Position numbers and translations under genes: made by a program. From positions 1 to 64,000 of the IMG/VR virus record IMGVR_UViG_3300008451_000399: a stretch of 64,000 nucleotides of DNA; one strand, 5' to 3'. Positions 4,984 to 55,939 of this stretch are shown here, piece after piece. Every line of letters begins with the position of its first letter. The stretch's first letter is position 1. The stretch comes from a virus. Below the pieces are notes generated by a model, which saw only the letters and a list, made by a program, of their open reading frames with translations, had not been told where the DNA came from and did no database searches.

Positions 4984-5199
4984 TTAATCAAAATTCCACT
5001 CAAGCCTCAACAAAAAATTATTATTACTAGCCTTCTTGTAGGATACCCATATCCCCTTATCTGTAAGCATACTAATAACATCATCCAACGTATACGGAAA
5101 ATTACATTGAATAACTTTAATAACTGTATTGTGCAGAAGGTTGTTAGCTTCCTCTTTAGCTTGTAATAGCTCTTTTACAATTGTTTGTGATTCGCTCAT
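4984..5199 (-). CDS. Hypothetical protein
   Basis: 71 residues, mostly helical, without a recognised motif. It overlaps the upstream gene by 4 nt (ATGA) and is the last gene before a terminator, so it is part of the 6445-4984 operon. Confidence 0.55.
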   Translation of the reverse strand: MSESQTIVKELLQAKEEANNLLHNTVIKVIQCNFPYTLDDVISMLTDKGIWVSYKKASNNNFLLRLEWNFD

Positions 5200-5480
5200 A
5201 AATTCTCCTCGTAATCTTTCATCTCCTTTGCAGTTACATACACAACTCGCTTAGAAAATGGAGTCATCTTAGTCAACTTTCCTTTATTAATACCTCGATT
5301 CGGTCTTTCAAACTCAGCACCAAACAGTCGCATACACCCATGTTGTCCTGTGTTATCATCCAACCATTCTGCCATATAAATACGAAAGTCGCTTGATATT
5401 GTGAATTGTGCCTTAATCTTCTCTAGTGCGATCTTACCATATGTTGTATCAGCAAATAAATCAGTTTCCATATCGCTCAT
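5196..5480 (-). CDS. Hypothetical protein
   Basis: 94 residues starting at an ATG with an AGGAG site; a second ATG three codons on is possible. Mixed alpha/beta with a basic middle part (RPNRGINKGKLTKMTPFSKR). No family recognised. It is coupled by ATGA overlap to the gene below. Confidence 0.55.
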   Translation of the reverse strand: MSDMETDLFADTTYGKIALEKIKAQFTISSDFRIYMAEWLDDNTGQHGCMRLFGAEFERPNRGINKGKLTKMTPFSKRVVYVTAKEMKDYEENL

Positions 5481-10534: not shown

Positions 10535-10563
10535 TTGACAACAGTGAAGATATGGTTTATACT
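10535..10563 (+). promoter_or_regulatory. Sigma70-type promoter for the packaging genes
   Basis: TTGACA (10535-10540), 17-nt spacer, TATACT (10558-10563). It is 30 bp upstream of the first rightward morphogenesis gene and also transcribes the structured region before the large terminase gene. Confidence 0.8.
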
Positions 10564-10593: not shown

Positions 10594-10974
10594 ATGAGTG
10601 CAGACGTAGATAATTCAGTAGGAGAGATAGTAAGGACAGGTGTTCAGAGTAAGAAGAACTCTATCACTATTCAGAAGAGGTTACTAAACAAAGAAAACAA
10701 ACCATCTATGGCTTACTTGGTATCTGTGAGAGATGACCCCACAGCAAGTAGGAAAGATAGGATGGAAGCAGCGAAGTTTCTCATGACTATGCACATGGAA
10801 TCTATCAAAGTCGAGTCTGCGGAGAAGGCTAGGAATAAAGAGTTTGCTGCGAAGCATCATGAATTACTTTTAAGTATTCAACGTAATGGTGGTATTATTG
10901 TGGATGATAGTGATGACGATGATGAGTCAAGTCCTCTACTTATGTTCGATCAAATCATGGATGTGGATGAATAA
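10594..10974 (+). CDS. Putative small terminase subunit
   Basis: 126 residues, called from position (first gene of the packaging/head block, upstream of the large terminase) and from a helical, highly charged make-up. A basic first half (SKKNSITIQKRLLNKENK; DPTASRKDRMEAAKF) could bind DNA. The C-terminus is very acidic (DDSDDDDE), as in some packaging proteins that contact the large subunit. No clear HTH. Small terminases recognise the packaging site. The call stays moderate because the sequence itself shows no family signature. Confidence 0.45.
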   Translation: MSADVDNSVGEIVRTGVQSKKNSITIQKRLLNKENKPSMAYLVSVRDDPTASRKDRMEAAKFLMTMHMESIKVESAEKARNKEFAAKHHELLLSIQRNGGIIVDDSDDDDESSPLLMFDQIMDVDE

Positions 10975-11122
10975 AATCTTATCAACCATGTGTTGATGTA
11001 GTCTCTCGCAAATATTAACTTGATACTGTCACTCGACACTTCAAGGTTTGTGAGGGAAGCTAGGCTCTGAGATATGTTGGCTTGCCTCCCCTCAGAGGGT
11101 TCCTTCTTAGCAAGGACAAGAA

Positions 11123-11134
11123 TGCGTGGTTGCA
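11123..11134 (+). repeat. 12-bp direct repeat, copy 1
   Basis: TGCGTGGTTGCA occurs here and again at 11464-11475, one copy before and one after the central hairpins of the region upstream of the large terminase gene. Such flanking repeats may be protein-binding sites or footprints of an insertion. Confidence 0.6.
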
Positions 11135-11135
11135 G

Positions 11136-11420
11136 TCACCGTGTAGGATTGAGGAGTTCCTTATAAACCTCGTTACGTACCTTTAGTTTAATGTTAGAAC
11201 ATACGCCTGCAGCGTAAAGTGAGAGGTCAAAACTCTCAGGGTACTCCATAGATTGCAAATACAACGGCTCTCCGTCATTCTCCTGCCATGCCCTCCTCAT
11301 GGTTCTCCTGTGACGTTGTAGAGCCGTTCTGTTTGCAATTTTTCGCAACAGTGTTTCGTCCCATATCTGGTAATTAGCGCCGTAAGTATCGTGGAACACT
11401 GTTGCATTCGGTATTTGCAA
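11136..11420 (-). CDS. Doubtful ORF inside the structured region
   Basis: 94 codons on the strand opposite to the packaging genes. The translation looks protein-like (balanced charges; ALQRHRRTMRRAW, NEVYKELLNPTR). However, the only start is a TTG without a Shine-Dalgarno sequence, there is no promoter, and the frame covers the 20-bp and 11-bp hairpins. It could be a decayed gene or chance. Confidence 0.2.
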   Translation of the reverse strand: MQIPNATVFHDTYGANYQIWDETLLRKIANRTALQRHRRTMRRAWQENDGEPLYLQSMEYPESFDLSLYAAGVCSNIKLKVRNEVYKELLNPTR

Positions 11421-11463
11421 ATAAAGAATATCAAGTATTTATAAGTACGAAAGTTAATGCAGG

Positions 11464-11475
11464 TGCGTGGTTGCA
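11464..11475 (+). repeat. 12-bp direct repeat, copy 2
   Basis: Second copy of TGCGTGGTTGCA. In this copy GTGGTTGC also pairs with GTAACCAC at 11481-11488 to form an 8-bp hairpin just upstream of the large terminase ribosome site. Confidence 0.6.
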
Positions 11476-11526
11476 AGTTAGTAACCACTTATTCTGTATT
11501 GGCGAATGTGAATTTAAAGGAGTAAA

Positions 11527-12966
11527 ATGAGTAAAAAAGAACGTAAAGTTCTTGCTCCAGCGTCAGAAGCACATAGGAAGTTTCTTAATTGTAAATCTAA
11601 TTTTGTTATTTTCGGAGGCGGGGCAGGTTCGGGCAAATCGCACCAAGCGTTAATGTTAATTTTAAAATACATTCACGACCCATACTTCAGAGGTGTATTT
11701 ATCCGCGAAACATCCACACAGCTTTCTCAGGCTGGTGGTTTGTTCATGGAAGCACAAGATATGTGGAAAGATTACGGAGCAAAGTTTAAGACACATCCTC
11801 AGATGACTGCCACATTTCCAAGTGGAGCACAAGTACAGTTCAAAGTGTGCCAAGCAGATAGAGATATCAACAACTTCGACGGTGGGCAGTTTTCACTGGT
11901 GTGCTTCGATGAGGCGCAATGGCACAGTGAAACTCAAATCAAGTATCTAGAGTCTCGTATTCGTTCTAAAGCACAAGCACCTCACCAACTTATCTGTACA
12001 GCCAACCCTTCAAGAGCTTCTTACCTCTACCAATTCGTGCAACCATATCTTGATATGGAAACAGGTATTCCTATTCCTGAATTGTCTGGTAAAGAGAGAT
12101 ACTACGCTACTTATGGTGGTGTTACGGTAACAGCAGATACAAAAGAAGAGTTACTTGAGAAGTACGGAGATAAAGTACAAGCTCAAACATACACTTATAT
12201 CTCTGCTACGGTTAAAGATAACCCGATCATGAAAATCCTGAATCCAAACTATGTAGCGCGTTTGGAGAACTTGAAGCGTACAGAACGTGAACGCCTCTAC
12301 TTGGGGTCATGGCACGCCAAAGAAGAGTCACGAGGATTTTTTAAGAGAGATTGGTGTGAAGTAATTACACAACTTCCAGACGATATTGTATCTACTGTGC
12401 GTGGTATGGATATTGCTGGTAGCTTACCTTCTGAAGCCTACCCCGACCCTGATTGGACTGCATCTGTAATGATGTCTAAGACAAAATCAGGACATTACAT
12501 TATACACCACGGAGAGAGATATAGGTCTTTAATCAATGGGGTAATGGAACACATTGCAGAGACAGACAGAAGAGATAAAGCAATAGGACATTTTCCTGCT
12601 GTGTATTTACCTGAAGACGTTGGGGTAGCAGCAAAGGCAGCAACGATGTTTTTTGTTAAAACACTAATTGAGTCTGGTGTAGATGCAAGGATTGATAAGT
12701 CTGGTGGCACGAAGAGCAAATTGCACAGGATGCAACCCTTTCTTACATTGGCAGAAGCAGGCTTTGTTAAAATTTTAGACGATGGTAGTTGGGACACAGA
12801 GCCTTTGTTGTCAGAATTGGAAGATTTTGTAGATGGGAAGCGCCAGCAAAAAGATGATTACTGGGATGCAACTGGTACAGCATGTAAGGCATTGATGAGA
12901 ACACAGACACTGCCCACATTCAGCCTACCCTCCCTAACAAAGCCATCCCCAGTTCCAAGAATATAA
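11527..12966 (+). CDS. terL: Terminase large subunit
   Basis: 479 residues, normal length. N-terminal ATPase: Walker A GGGAGSGKS (30-38), Walker B LVCFDE (124-129), coupling motif TANPSR (158-163). C-terminal RNase H-like nuclease: RGMDIAG with first Asp, VYLPEDVG with a second acidic site, and DDYWDATGTACKAL near the end. It powers DNA translocation into the prohead and cuts the concatemer. AAAGGAG lies 5 nt upstream of the ATG. It is separated from the presumed small subunit gene by the structured region, which is unusual, since the two normally touch. Confidence 0.95.
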   Translation: MSKKERKVLAPASEAHRKFLNCKSNFVIFGGGAGSGKSHQALMLILKYIHDPYFRGVFIRETSTQLSQAGGLFMEAQDMWKDYGAKFKTHPQMTATFPSGAQVQFKVCQADRDINNFDGGQFSLVCFDEAQWHSETQIKYLESRIRSKAQAPHQLICTANPSRASYLYQFVQPYLDMETGIPIPELSGKERYYATYGGVTVTADTKEELLEKYGDKVQAQTYTYISATVKDNPIMKILNPNYVARLENLKRTERERLYLGSWHAKEESRGFFKRDWCEVITQLPDDIVSTVRGMDIAGSLPSEAYPDPDWTASVMMSKTKSGHYIIHHGERYRSLINGVMEHIAETDRRDKAIGHFPAVYLPEDVGVAAKAATMFFVKTLIESGVDARIDKSGGTKSKLHRMQPFLTLAEAGFVKILDDGSWDTEPLLSELEDFVDGKRQQKDDYWDATGTACKALMRTQTLPTFSLPSLTKPSPVPRI

Positions 12967-50448: not shown

Positions 50449-50525
50449 TGGTGTACCGTGTGTGATTTGAACACACGACCTTGGTGTTATGAGCACCCTG
50501 CTACTGACCTCTGAGCTAACGGTAC
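50449..50525 (-). tRNA. tRNA-Met (anticodon CAU)
   Basis: Cloverleaf of 77 nt including an encoded CCA end. Acceptor GTACCGT pairs with ACGGTAC. The anticodon loop is CTCATAA, giving CAT; the T arm is GTGTG-TTCAAAT-CACAC. The D stem is short (GCT/AGC) and the top pair of the anticodon stem is G-A, so it is slightly irregular. CAU could also mark a lysidine-modified Ile tRNA for AUA codons. Confidence 0.88.
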
Positions 50526-50527
50526 AA

Positions 50528-50605
50528 TGGTGACACTGGCAGGAGTCGAACCTGCGACCTATGGAGTAGAAATCCACTGCTCTAAATCCTCTGAGCTACA
50601 GTGCC
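50528..50605 (-). tRNA. tRNA-Arg (anticodon UCU)
   Basis: 78 nt with encoded CCA. Acceptor GGCACTG pairs with CAGTGTC (one G-U). The anticodon stem is GTGGA/TCCAT, loop TTTCTAC, anticodon TCT for AGA. The T arm is GCAGG-TTCGACT-CCTGC. AGA is frequent in this AT-rich phage and rare in many hosts, which explains carrying this tRNA. Confidence 0.93.
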
Positions 50606-53566: not shown

Positions 53567-53769
53567 TCGTTACGTGTTTCGTTATTTTCATAACTAATTG
53601 GACTATATCACCACCCTGACAGGGTGCTCACCGTTTCGAGTTCACTTGAACCCTACTCCATCTCTGGATAGTCTCTGGGCATTTAGGAAGCAAGCTTCCA
53701 TTTAGCACAGTGGTTAGCGTAGCTCCCGCCTTAGCTTTCCCTGTTTAGATGAGTTATCATTTACAGATT
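53567..53769 (-). other. Group I intron in the DNA polymerase gene (no ORF)
   Basis: About 200 nt between the two polymerase exons. P7 halves GACTAT (53673-53668) and ATAGTC in GATATAGTCC (53606-53601) match the group I R and S elements. P9 is a GTTAT-GAAA-ATAAC hairpin (53594-53581). A CACCCT/AGGGTG hairpin (53626-53612) fits P8 and a GGAAG/CTTCC hairpin (53699-53686) fits P6. A TTTACAGA/TCTGTAAA hairpin spans the 5' exon junction (P1 candidate). Exon 1 in-frame stop at 53768-53770 lies at the intron start. Joining T53770 to 53565 gives a continuous frame (GFTEL-YNYKDE); other nearby junctions also restore it. Confidence 0.85.
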
Positions 53770-55939
53770 ACTCTGTAAAGCCACAACAATGTTTATGGTA
53801 CGCAATAAGCTGTTGACAGAAGTTTTTATTCTTCCAATCGTCCTTAAAGAAATCCACACTAAGCCCTTCATCCTTCAGCATCTTATCGTGGAGCACCATC
53901 GCACGTTTGGCAGCAATAACACCACAACTTTGAAACTGACTATTAACTACATTTCCTTTAGATCGAATAGGTAGCTTACGTCCATCAATACCGAGTAAGA
54001 ATTTCTTCTGCCCAGTAGTCTCCCAATACTTCTGCATGTTCTCTTTCAACTGCTTTAGAGGATATGCTTGAGTCCAGAAAGCATTAAAAATAATATTACC
54101 TGTTTCTAAGTCGCAACCTACTGTCTTCGCTACTCGCTTTGGTTGAGCATTATAACTGCAACCGTACTTTACATTCTTAGCTGTTCCACGAGGAAATGGT
54201 CTTCCTAGTAATTCAGTAATACTTGCAGCAAGCACAGAATGACAGTCATTAGGTTTCTCTGCTGTCAAGCTGTAACCGTACTCCTTGCCTCCTTCATACT
54301 TGTAAACAAAGGAAGCTTCAACTTTAGCCTCAAGGCTGTCGAAATCAAAAGCCATCTGAAGGAACCCGTCTTTAACATCCACTCCGAACAAACTGCGCAT
54401 CTCCTTACCATAAATACTTGTCGTTCTGCTAATATTTGCAACTTTACGGTGCTTGAACCTAGAAGTCCCAGCTCCGCAAGTATCAGCAGGTGTTGGAATC
54501 CTATGATCTAAGTTCAATCGCGGCTCACTTAGAAAACCCTTCTCAGGCTCTTCGTCATCTGCGTCAGGGTCTACACCTCCTCCAAGAATACTGTTACGTC
54601 TGTGAGTGTACGTGAAGTAATCAGACACCAACTTAGCATGAGGAAACTTATCAGCAATCTCTAGCAAGTTAGGGTCAATCTCTTTCTCTTGCCCTACTGT
54701 CAGTGTCGGGTTAGTATAAACCTTCAAAGGACGTGAGATGTCATGCTTCATTAACTTCTCTCGCAGCTTCTTAGGAGTTGTCTCCAACTCATCACAACGG
54801 TCTTTACAGAAAGGACTACTTAAAGTCTGCTCTACGTACTTCTCAACTGCTGCTTCAAATTTCTCTCTACTAATCTTTTTCTTCTTTGAGTCACAAGTAA
54901 GGTCACGCTCCTTGTACTGCGTTGGAACCCATTTAAATTCTTGCACTAGCCACCCTTTAATGTGAGAGCTGTCTGCTGCACTGCTACTCAACTTACCAGC
55001 TTCGGTTGAAATTAAAGGCTCACATGGAATTGGTAATGCCATACTCTTATCAAAGATTGTTGCTACCCACTTTCCATCTACTTCCTCTAGAGTTCCATTG
55101 TGCTTGCTAATAAAGTTTTTAATGTGTGTACTAGGTTGCCCACTTTTCAAGAATTGAGTATTAGGTGGAGTGTACTCTTTCTGCTTCGTCTTCGGTAGAG
55201 ACTTAGGTGGAATAAGAGGTTCAACAATGTCACGTATTGTATCCATCTTTTCGTCTAAATCTCGTACACAGTCTTCGGCTTTATCTTTATCAAACCAGAA
55301 GCCTCTGTGCTGTTGTCGTGTAATGATTTCAGCAACAGCTTGTTCCAACTTAAAAGCATCAGTCCAATTCCAATCACCCCACTCTTTCATCAGAGCTTTA
55401 TAGACTAAGTGATTAACTTCTACGTCTCGAATGTTATACACAAGCATTTCTGGATGGTACTGTTTAAATTCATCTCCGTCAGAAGCATCCTTTCCAATCA
55501 GTCCCATCTCAATAGCCTTGCTTCGCCAGTCAATCTTCTCAAGTCCTAGTGTCTTACCCCAAGCATCAATACTATGACCTCCATAGCGGTCTGGATTAAG
55601 AGCTTTTGACAAAATTAGGGTATCCCATATCTCTACAGGCTTACCATCTATCTTGTCAATGTCTCCTATTTCGTAGTCAATACCTAAGTACAATTTAATA
55701 GCCAACAAGTCAAAGTTGATTTGGTTGTGAGCAATAACCATTGTAGCTTGTTTAAAGAAAGCTGGAAACTTAGTTTTCACTTCGTCTTCTACGAATGTGT
55801 AAATCTTGCCAGTGTCTATGTCTTTAGCAGCTATACAGTGAATCTTAAACGTGTCTAAGAGTTTGTAAGGGCTGCTAGTATAGTCTACACTCGTGTGGTC
55901 GATGAAGCCATTGCTCTCAATATCCCATACAATTCTCAT
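53770..55939 (-). CDS. polA: DNA polymerase family A, 5' exon (exonuclease and most of polymerase)
   Basis: About 723 codons. N-terminal 3'-5' exonuclease: Exo I RIVWDIESNG (2-11), Exo II IAHNQINFDLLA, Exo III LVYNIRDVEVN. Polymerase part: motif A AFDFDSLEAKVEASF, motif B-like RGTAKNVKYGCSYNAQPKRVA, and VNSQFQSCGVIAAKRAMVLH before the break. The exon ends before motif C, which is in the 3' exon. The spliced protein is about 830 residues, similar in domain layout to T7 gp5 with extra insertions. AAAGGAG precedes the ATG. An HNH endonuclease gene lies between its promoter and this start. Confidence 0.93.

What the first reader, a model, noticed from the sequence alone, without database searches (positions are those of the whole stretch)
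11003..11508. About 500 nt of dense hairpins between the terminase genes: candidate new structured phage RNA or packaging element
Seen in the sequence: at least nine helices in a row, including a 20-position stem (18 Watson-Crick, one G-U, one mismatch; 11252-11271/11320-11339) with further nested stems, a perfect 11-bp stem (11345-11355/11395-11405), and a 10-bp stem with two G-U pairs (11003-11012/11047-11056). Small and large terminase genes are normally adjacent; here a long stretch without a convincing gene separates them. The G-U pairs work only in the plus transcript, which is made from the promoter at 10535. Large ornate non-coding RNAs (GOLLD, ROOL) and a packaging RNA (phi29 pRNA) are known in phages, but I do not recognise this as one of them. 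It could also be a cos/pac site or a DNA-hairpin mobile element.
Basis: partly seen in the sequence, partly recalled or inferred. Interest (0 to 1): 0.82.

Follow-up and report, generated by a model that had tools for sequence, protein, structure and literature searches.

The report
Structured RNA in phage tRNA island
Between two DNA-packaging genes, this uncultured phage carries a non-coding stretch that folds into a conserved RNA (a pseudoknot, a decayed tRNA-Gly and a long hairpin with CUCCU loops); compensatory mutations in its relatives show it is a real RNA family absent from Rfam, sitting where related phages keep tRNA genes and stable small RNAs of unknown function.

Summary
The hairpins are real and selected. 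The plus strand of 10975-11526 folds far better than shuffles (z -6.3; minus strand -2.6). The 20-position stem (11252-11271/11320-11339) occurs in ten related phages with 99.5% of cells paired, compensatory change at 10 of 19 pairs, an invariant C.C mismatch, and 20 G.U against 0 A.C, so it acts as plus-strand RNA, not DNA or a minus-strand gene. An H-type pseudoknot (11145-11171) re-forms in diverged relatives. 11177-11248 is a decayed tRNA-Gly: tRNA-Gly(UCC) genes stand at that place in relatives. Most relatives also carry a downstream two-hairpin domain (19 sequences, 99.5% paired, covariation 1.36 against 0.28 shuffled) that this phage has lost. No Rfam family matches. Related phages keep tRNA islands upstream of terL; in PAK_P3 an abundant late sRNA was seen there by RNA-seq, and T4 has two stable RNAs at the end of its tRNA cluster. 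Best reading: a new family of tRNA-island structured RNA, probably a stable late RNA. It precedes two diverged types of TerL and is sometimes separated from terL by an endonuclease gene, so a terL-specific switch or packaging element is unlikely. Function is inferred only.

The parts
10535..10563 (+). sigma70-like promoter upstream of the terS-like gene; probable start of the transcript that holds the RNA
   Evidence: TTGACA-17-TATACT, 11 of 12; similar boxes at the same place in L012 and L015
10594..10974 (+). 126-aa protein at the small-terminase position (named by position only)
   Evidence: ORF; conserved in relatives; no family match
11003..11056 (+). 5' hairpin (10-bp outer stem with two G-U, inner CTTGA/TTCAAG stem); not seen in the relatives compared, so support is folding only
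11057..11118 (+). second 5' hairpin region, GCTAGGCTCTGAG..CTCAGAGGG; support is folding only
11126..11139 (+). small hairpin GTGGTTGCAGTCAC just 5' of the pseudoknot; similar hairpins at this place in L015, L017, L018, L023
11145..11171 (+). H-type pseudoknot AGGA-TT-GAGG-AGT-TCCT-TATAAA-CCTC (S1 AGGA/TCCT, S2 GAGG/CCTC, A-rich third loop)
   Evidence: both helices re-form in the different sequences of L017, L018, L023 and L005
11177..11248 (+). decayed tRNA-Gly: 7-bp acceptor stem, U73 and CCA kept; 5-nt anticodon loop, no GG in the D loop, G at T54
   Evidence: RF00005 48.7 bits, not called by ARAGORN, aligned with tRNA-Gly(UCC) of L004, L005, L010, L018, L023 at the same place
11250..11342 (+). 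main hairpin HP: P1 11252-11271/11320-11339 with invariant C.C mismatch, P2, P3, and CUCC(U)-rich internal and apical loops
   Evidence: covariation, G.U tally and folds, model R1, z -9.3
11345..11405 (+). third hairpin (HP3), 11-bp stem; shared with L002, L012, L015 and, with a weaker stem, L017; absent in other relatives
11457..11488 (+). possible remnant of the D domain (GCAGGTGCGTGGTTGCA) overlapping a hairpin GTGGTTGCAAGTTAGTAACCAC; the intact D domain of relatives is missing here
   Evidence: searches (loop alignment; hairpin at chance level), no model R2 match in this genome
11527..12966 (+). large terminase gene terL
   Evidence: PF03237 E 5e-23, phrog_979 E 3e-144

Best explanation
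The stretch is the phage's RNA island: a non-coding part of the terS-terL transcript at the place where related phages keep tRNA genes. Its core is a selected plus-strand RNA made of a pseudoknot, the slot of a tRNA-Gly (decayed here) and a 93-nt hairpin with CUCC(U) loops; most relatives add a 3' two-hairpin domain. Shown by comparison: structure, strand, conservation, position and tRNA ancestry. Inferred: it is transcribed from the promoter at 10535, cut out of the transcript (tRNA-type processing next to the tRNA, perhaps RNase III in the long stem) and accumulates late as a stable small RNA. Inferred and weaker: its CUCC(U) loops, which resemble the anti-Shine-Dalgarno sequence of 16S rRNA, pair with ribosome-binding sites and so tune translation.
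For: Fold z -6.3 on the plus strand. P1: 99.5% paired, 10 of 19 pairs with compensatory change, score 0.516 against 0.228, 0/500 shuffles. P2 and P3: 98.4% paired, 7 of 9 pairs with change on both sides. 20 G.U and 0 A.C in P1. D domain in 19 relatives: 99.5% paired, score 1.36 against 0.28, found by model in loci outside the training set (L093, L084, L080). tRNA-Gly at the same slot in five relatives. tRNA islands directly upstream of terL in related cultured phages. RNA-seq precedent at this locus: PAK_P3 sRNA2, abundant late, between two tRNAs (PMC4933390). T4 layout: two stable RNAs after the last tRNA.
Against: No expression data for this phage. The 5' hairpins 11003-11118 are not shown to be conserved. 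The D domain, the best conserved part in relatives, is missing here and in L015, so the window copy may be partly decayed. PAK_P3 sRNA2 and T4 rnaC/rnaD are not matched by our models. No target or partner of the CUCC loops is known; pairing with the D domain was no better than composition predicts.
Confidence: 0.6

Rival explanations
1. Cis-acting control of terL: the structures act within the terS-terL mRNA, for example the CUCCU loops mask the terL Shine-Dalgarno sequence or the hairpins attenuate transcription before terL.
For: The element lies upstream of terL in every locus; CUCCU is complementary to AGGAG of the terL ribosome-binding site.
Against: An endonuclease gene stands between the element and terL in L003, L005 and L015. 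The same hairpin precedes two TerL types that share only about 33% identity (L017 and L018 against L001 and the window). No hairpin in the conserved core scores as an intrinsic terminator; the only terminator-like site, 11467-11488, is at chance level.
Confidence: 0.2
2. Remains of a tRNA cluster with processing hairpins: the structures only help to cut or protect neighbouring tRNAs and have no function of their own.
For: Decayed tRNA in the window; HP starts a few bases after the CCA of tRNA-Gly in L005, L018 and L023.
Against: HP and pseudoknot are kept with compensatory changes in L001, L003, L012 and L015, where no tRNA-Gly stands between them; loops keep CUCC motifs beyond what a processing stem needs.
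Confidence: 0.13
3. DNA packaging signal (pac or cos) or an RNA part of the packaging motor like phi29 pRNA.
For: Lies between terminase genes; in PAK_P1-like phages with a deposited start at terL the genome end is near this locus.
Against: Structure is conserved as RNA (20 G.U, 0 A.C); no pRNA match in Rfam; kept when TerL is replaced by a diverged type; no terminal repeat found in this record.
Confidence: 0.05
4. Minus-strand gene: the 94-aa frame 11136-11420 encodes a protein.
For: An open frame exists; weak PHROG 9359 match, E 0.005.
Against: The frame is broken by stops in L003, L012, L018, L002, L023 or L005, and hairpin lengths vary by non-multiples of three.
Confidence: 0.02

Closest known systems
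PAK_P3 sRNA2 (Nankokuvirus; PMC4933390)
   Same: Small RNA inside the tRNA island upstream of terL in a phage with about 40% identical TerL; abundant late in infection by RNA-seq
   Different: No sequence or model match (the near relative L064 also has none); sRNA2 holds a T-arm-like 3' part, the window core does not
T4 species 2 and 1 RNAs (rnaD, rnaC)
   Same: Stable RNAs of unknown function at the 3' end of a phage tRNA cluster that also holds a homing endonuclease gene
   Different: No match of models R1 or R2; locus is not next to terL
GOLLD and ROOL
   Same: Structured phage RNAs near tRNA islands; GOLLD can hold tRNAs in its linker (PMC12286853)
   Different: No Rfam match; the conserved core here is about 100-250 nt, against 800 nt or more for many GOLLD members
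Gram-positive sRNAs with UCCC loops that bind Shine-Dalgarno sequences (for example in S. aureus; own knowledge)
   Same: Several unpaired CUCC(U) loops in one RNA
   Different: No homology; no target tested

Membership tests
GOLLD / ROOL / OLE / phi29 pRNA (Rfam) | Match to the family covariance model | tested here: not met
   cmscan of the window and of 10900-11600 up to E 5: only tRNA and a chance microRNA hit
GOLLD / ROOL | Position near a phage tRNA island | tested here: met
   decayed tRNA-Gly in the element; tRNAs in the gap of many relatives
GOLLD / ROOL | Homo-oligomeric nanocage | not testable with these tools
   needs cryo-EM
tRNA | Cloverleaf with functional anticodon loop, D-loop GG and T54 | tested here: not met
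   Rfam hit 48.7 bits but 5-nt anticodon loop, no GG, G at T54; ARAGORN does not call it
PAK_P3 sRNA2 | Shared sequence or structure | tested here: not met
   R2 gives no match in L070; R1 and R2 give none in the related L064
T4 species 1 and 2 RNAs | Shared sequence or structure | tested here: not met
   R1 and R2 give no match in L103
T4 species 1 and 2 RNAs | Discrete stable RNA in infected cells | not testable with these tools
   needs RNA from infected cells
terL cis-regulatory leader | Always adjacent to one kind of downstream gene | tested here: not met
   endonuclease genes intervene and TerL type changes
DNA-hairpin mobile element | Several copies, and structure not dependent on G.U of one strand | tested here: not met
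   one copy per genome; 20 G.U, 0 A.C

The most novel reading that the evidence does not exclude
A previously undescribed phage RNA family (pseudoknot, tRNA slot, CUCCU hairpin, GUGGnGA two-hairpin domain) that is made in quantity late in infection and acts on the translation machinery by mimicking the anti-Shine-Dalgarno sequence, with functional tRNAs carried inside it in some phages.
Probability: 0.22. Interest if true: 0.8.

Novelty: new variant of a known kind. Interest (0 to 1): 0.6.

Why it matters
Phage tRNA islands have yielded stable RNAs of unknown function since the T4 species 1 and 2 RNAs. Here is a family with strong comparative support, a defined core, visible gain and loss of a tRNA and of one domain, and a spread over many uncultured phages. 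It gives a concrete structure with which to test what the non-tRNA RNAs of phage tRNA islands do, and it explains gaps of several hundred bases between terminase genes that annotation leaves blank.

Tried and rejected
Blastn and tblastn of the element against 50,697 phage records: nothing relevant. Degenerate hairpin pattern in viral contigs: 38 hits, of which only L031 (the contig of L001) and L015 show the hairpin context; the rest look like chance. D-motif pattern scan: nothing. Long-range pairing between the CUCC loops and the GGAG of the D domain: not above composition, dropped. Minus-strand ORF: rejected. Terminator reading of 11467-11488: chance level. Terminal repeats to locate packaging ends: none in the record. 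PDB and NCBIfam search for the terS-like protein: nothing. MAFFT misaligns the hairpin apex and the D stems, so pairs were counted on arms aligned by structure; the arms were picked by eye, which inflates the percentage paired, and the slid and shuffled controls are the guard.

Full report
Observation. The plus strand of 10975-11526 folds at -179.6 kcal/mol against a shuffled mean of -141.0 (z -6.3, 0/100); the minus strand has z -2.6. The main hairpin 11249-11342 alone has z -9.3 and the next one z -4.3.

Relatives. The TerL protein finds ten related loci in viral contigs; an exact 21-base motif from the gap, the terS-like alignment and a diverged TerL find more. The gap between the terS-like gene and terL varies from about 300 to more than 1500 nt and is filled by tRNA genes, endonuclease-like genes and structured RNA. 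Cultured phages with 31-40% identical TerL (Felixounavirus, Otagovirus, Nankokuvirus, Pakpunavirus, Kolesnikvirus, Saclayvirus) have their tRNA island just upstream of terL. The gap is therefore a tRNA-island locus.

Main hairpin (HP, 11250-11342). Ten homologues were compared. In the 20-position stem P1, 99.5% of cells pair, 10 of 19 pairs show changes on both sides, the covariation score is 0.516 against 0.228 for shuffles (0/500), and slid controls reach at most 0.11. The mismatch is C.C in all ten. Inner stems P2 and P3: 98.4% paired, 7 of 9 pairs with changes on both sides. P1 holds 20 G.U and no A.C cells, so the structure is that of the plus-strand RNA. The minus-strand frame is broken in relatives. 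Model R1 finds HP once in the window's genome and once in each related genome that has it, at this locus (weaker minus-strand matches are the same hairpin read backwards). The unpaired parts are rich in CUCC(U).

Pseudoknot (11145-11171). Six phages share the window's sequence; L017, L018, L023 and L005 have different sequences in which both helices of an H-type pseudoknot form again, with an A-rich third loop. With few sequence types this is good but not statistical support.

Decayed tRNA (11177-11248). Rfam calls a tRNA (48.7 bits); ARAGORN does not. In L004, L005 and L010 ARAGORN calls tRNA-Gly(UCC) just upstream of the hairpin, and Rfam finds a tRNA there in L018 and L023. The window copy aligns with these, keeps U73 and CCA, but has a 5-nt anticodon loop and lacks the D-loop GG and T54. 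L001, L003, L012 and L015 have no tRNA between pseudoknot and hairpin. I read this as decay and loss of a tRNA inside a retained RNA frame.

D domain. Most relatives carry, 3' of HP, GUGGnGA followed by two hairpins, the second with a loop near GCARGG..AGYGUGGC. On 19 sequences 99.5% of cells pair, 100 cells change on both sides, score 1.36 against 0.28; 16 G.U against 1 A.C. Model R2 found it in loci outside its training set (L093, L084, L080, and more weakly L006) and, apart from one weak extra match, once per related genome; it is absent from the window's genome and from that of L015. A remnant may lie at 11457-11475. So the window shows a derived form of the RNA.

Mechanism. Shown: structure, strand, conservation, locus, tRNA ancestry. 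Inferred: co-transcription from the promoter at 10535, release by tRNA-type processing, accumulation as a stable RNA. Precedents: PAK_P3 sRNA2, an abundant late RNA between two tRNAs at the same locus (PMC4933390), and T4 rnaD and rnaC after the last tRNA. Neither is matched by our models. A terL-specific cis role is disfavoured because endonuclease genes intervene in some relatives and because the same hairpin precedes two diverged TerL types. Action of the CUCC loops on Shine-Dalgarno sequences is a guess; the one pairing tested, with the D domain, failed.

Status. No Rfam family matches apart from tRNA (the other hits there are below threshold), no phage record in INPHARED shows it by blastn, and limited paper searches found no description. 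It is a new RNA family of a known kind: structured RNA of phage tRNA islands.

Noticed in passing
L001 4074-4275, L002 1304-1521, L003 4094-4358, L006 4440-4659, L015 6218-6446, L018 6568-6810; L009 and L012 by eye: Group I introns interrupt terL of relatives, several of them at the P-loop codons of the ATPase; the window's terL has none.
   Followed up: partly
L003 3066-3184, L015 4518-4632, L018 about 5120-5225, L005 2155-2257, L006 3085-3185: A conserved long hairpin precedes endonuclease-like genes in the gap; its loop (CCTCACAAG, or CCCTACA in L005) is complementary to the Shine-Dalgarno region of the gene (CTTGTGAGG, or TGTAGGG), an SD-masking pseudoknot candidate.
   Followed up: partly
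L010 3205-3488: A further RNA of about 285 nt closed by a stem of about 25 bp in the tRNA island of a relative, without an Rfam hit.
   Followed up: no
L070 2310-2433 (PAK_P3 sRNA2), L065 3090-3212 (PaGz-1), L103 1409-1547 minus strand (T4 rnaC): These tRNA-island RNAs all end in a T-arm-like hairpin and carry CGUAAGCC; they may form one tRNA-like sRNA family.
   Followed up: no
L065 3215-3275: Pakpunavirus PaGz-1 has a hairpin with a CCTCCTCC loop just upstream of terL, conserved in more than 100 Pseudomonas phage records, that resembles HP in its loop but is not matched by R1.
   Followed up: partly
window 53579-53805 (-) and 50449-50605 (-): A group I intron and two intact tRNA genes (Met-CAT, Arg-TCT) elsewhere in the window.
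   Followed up: no
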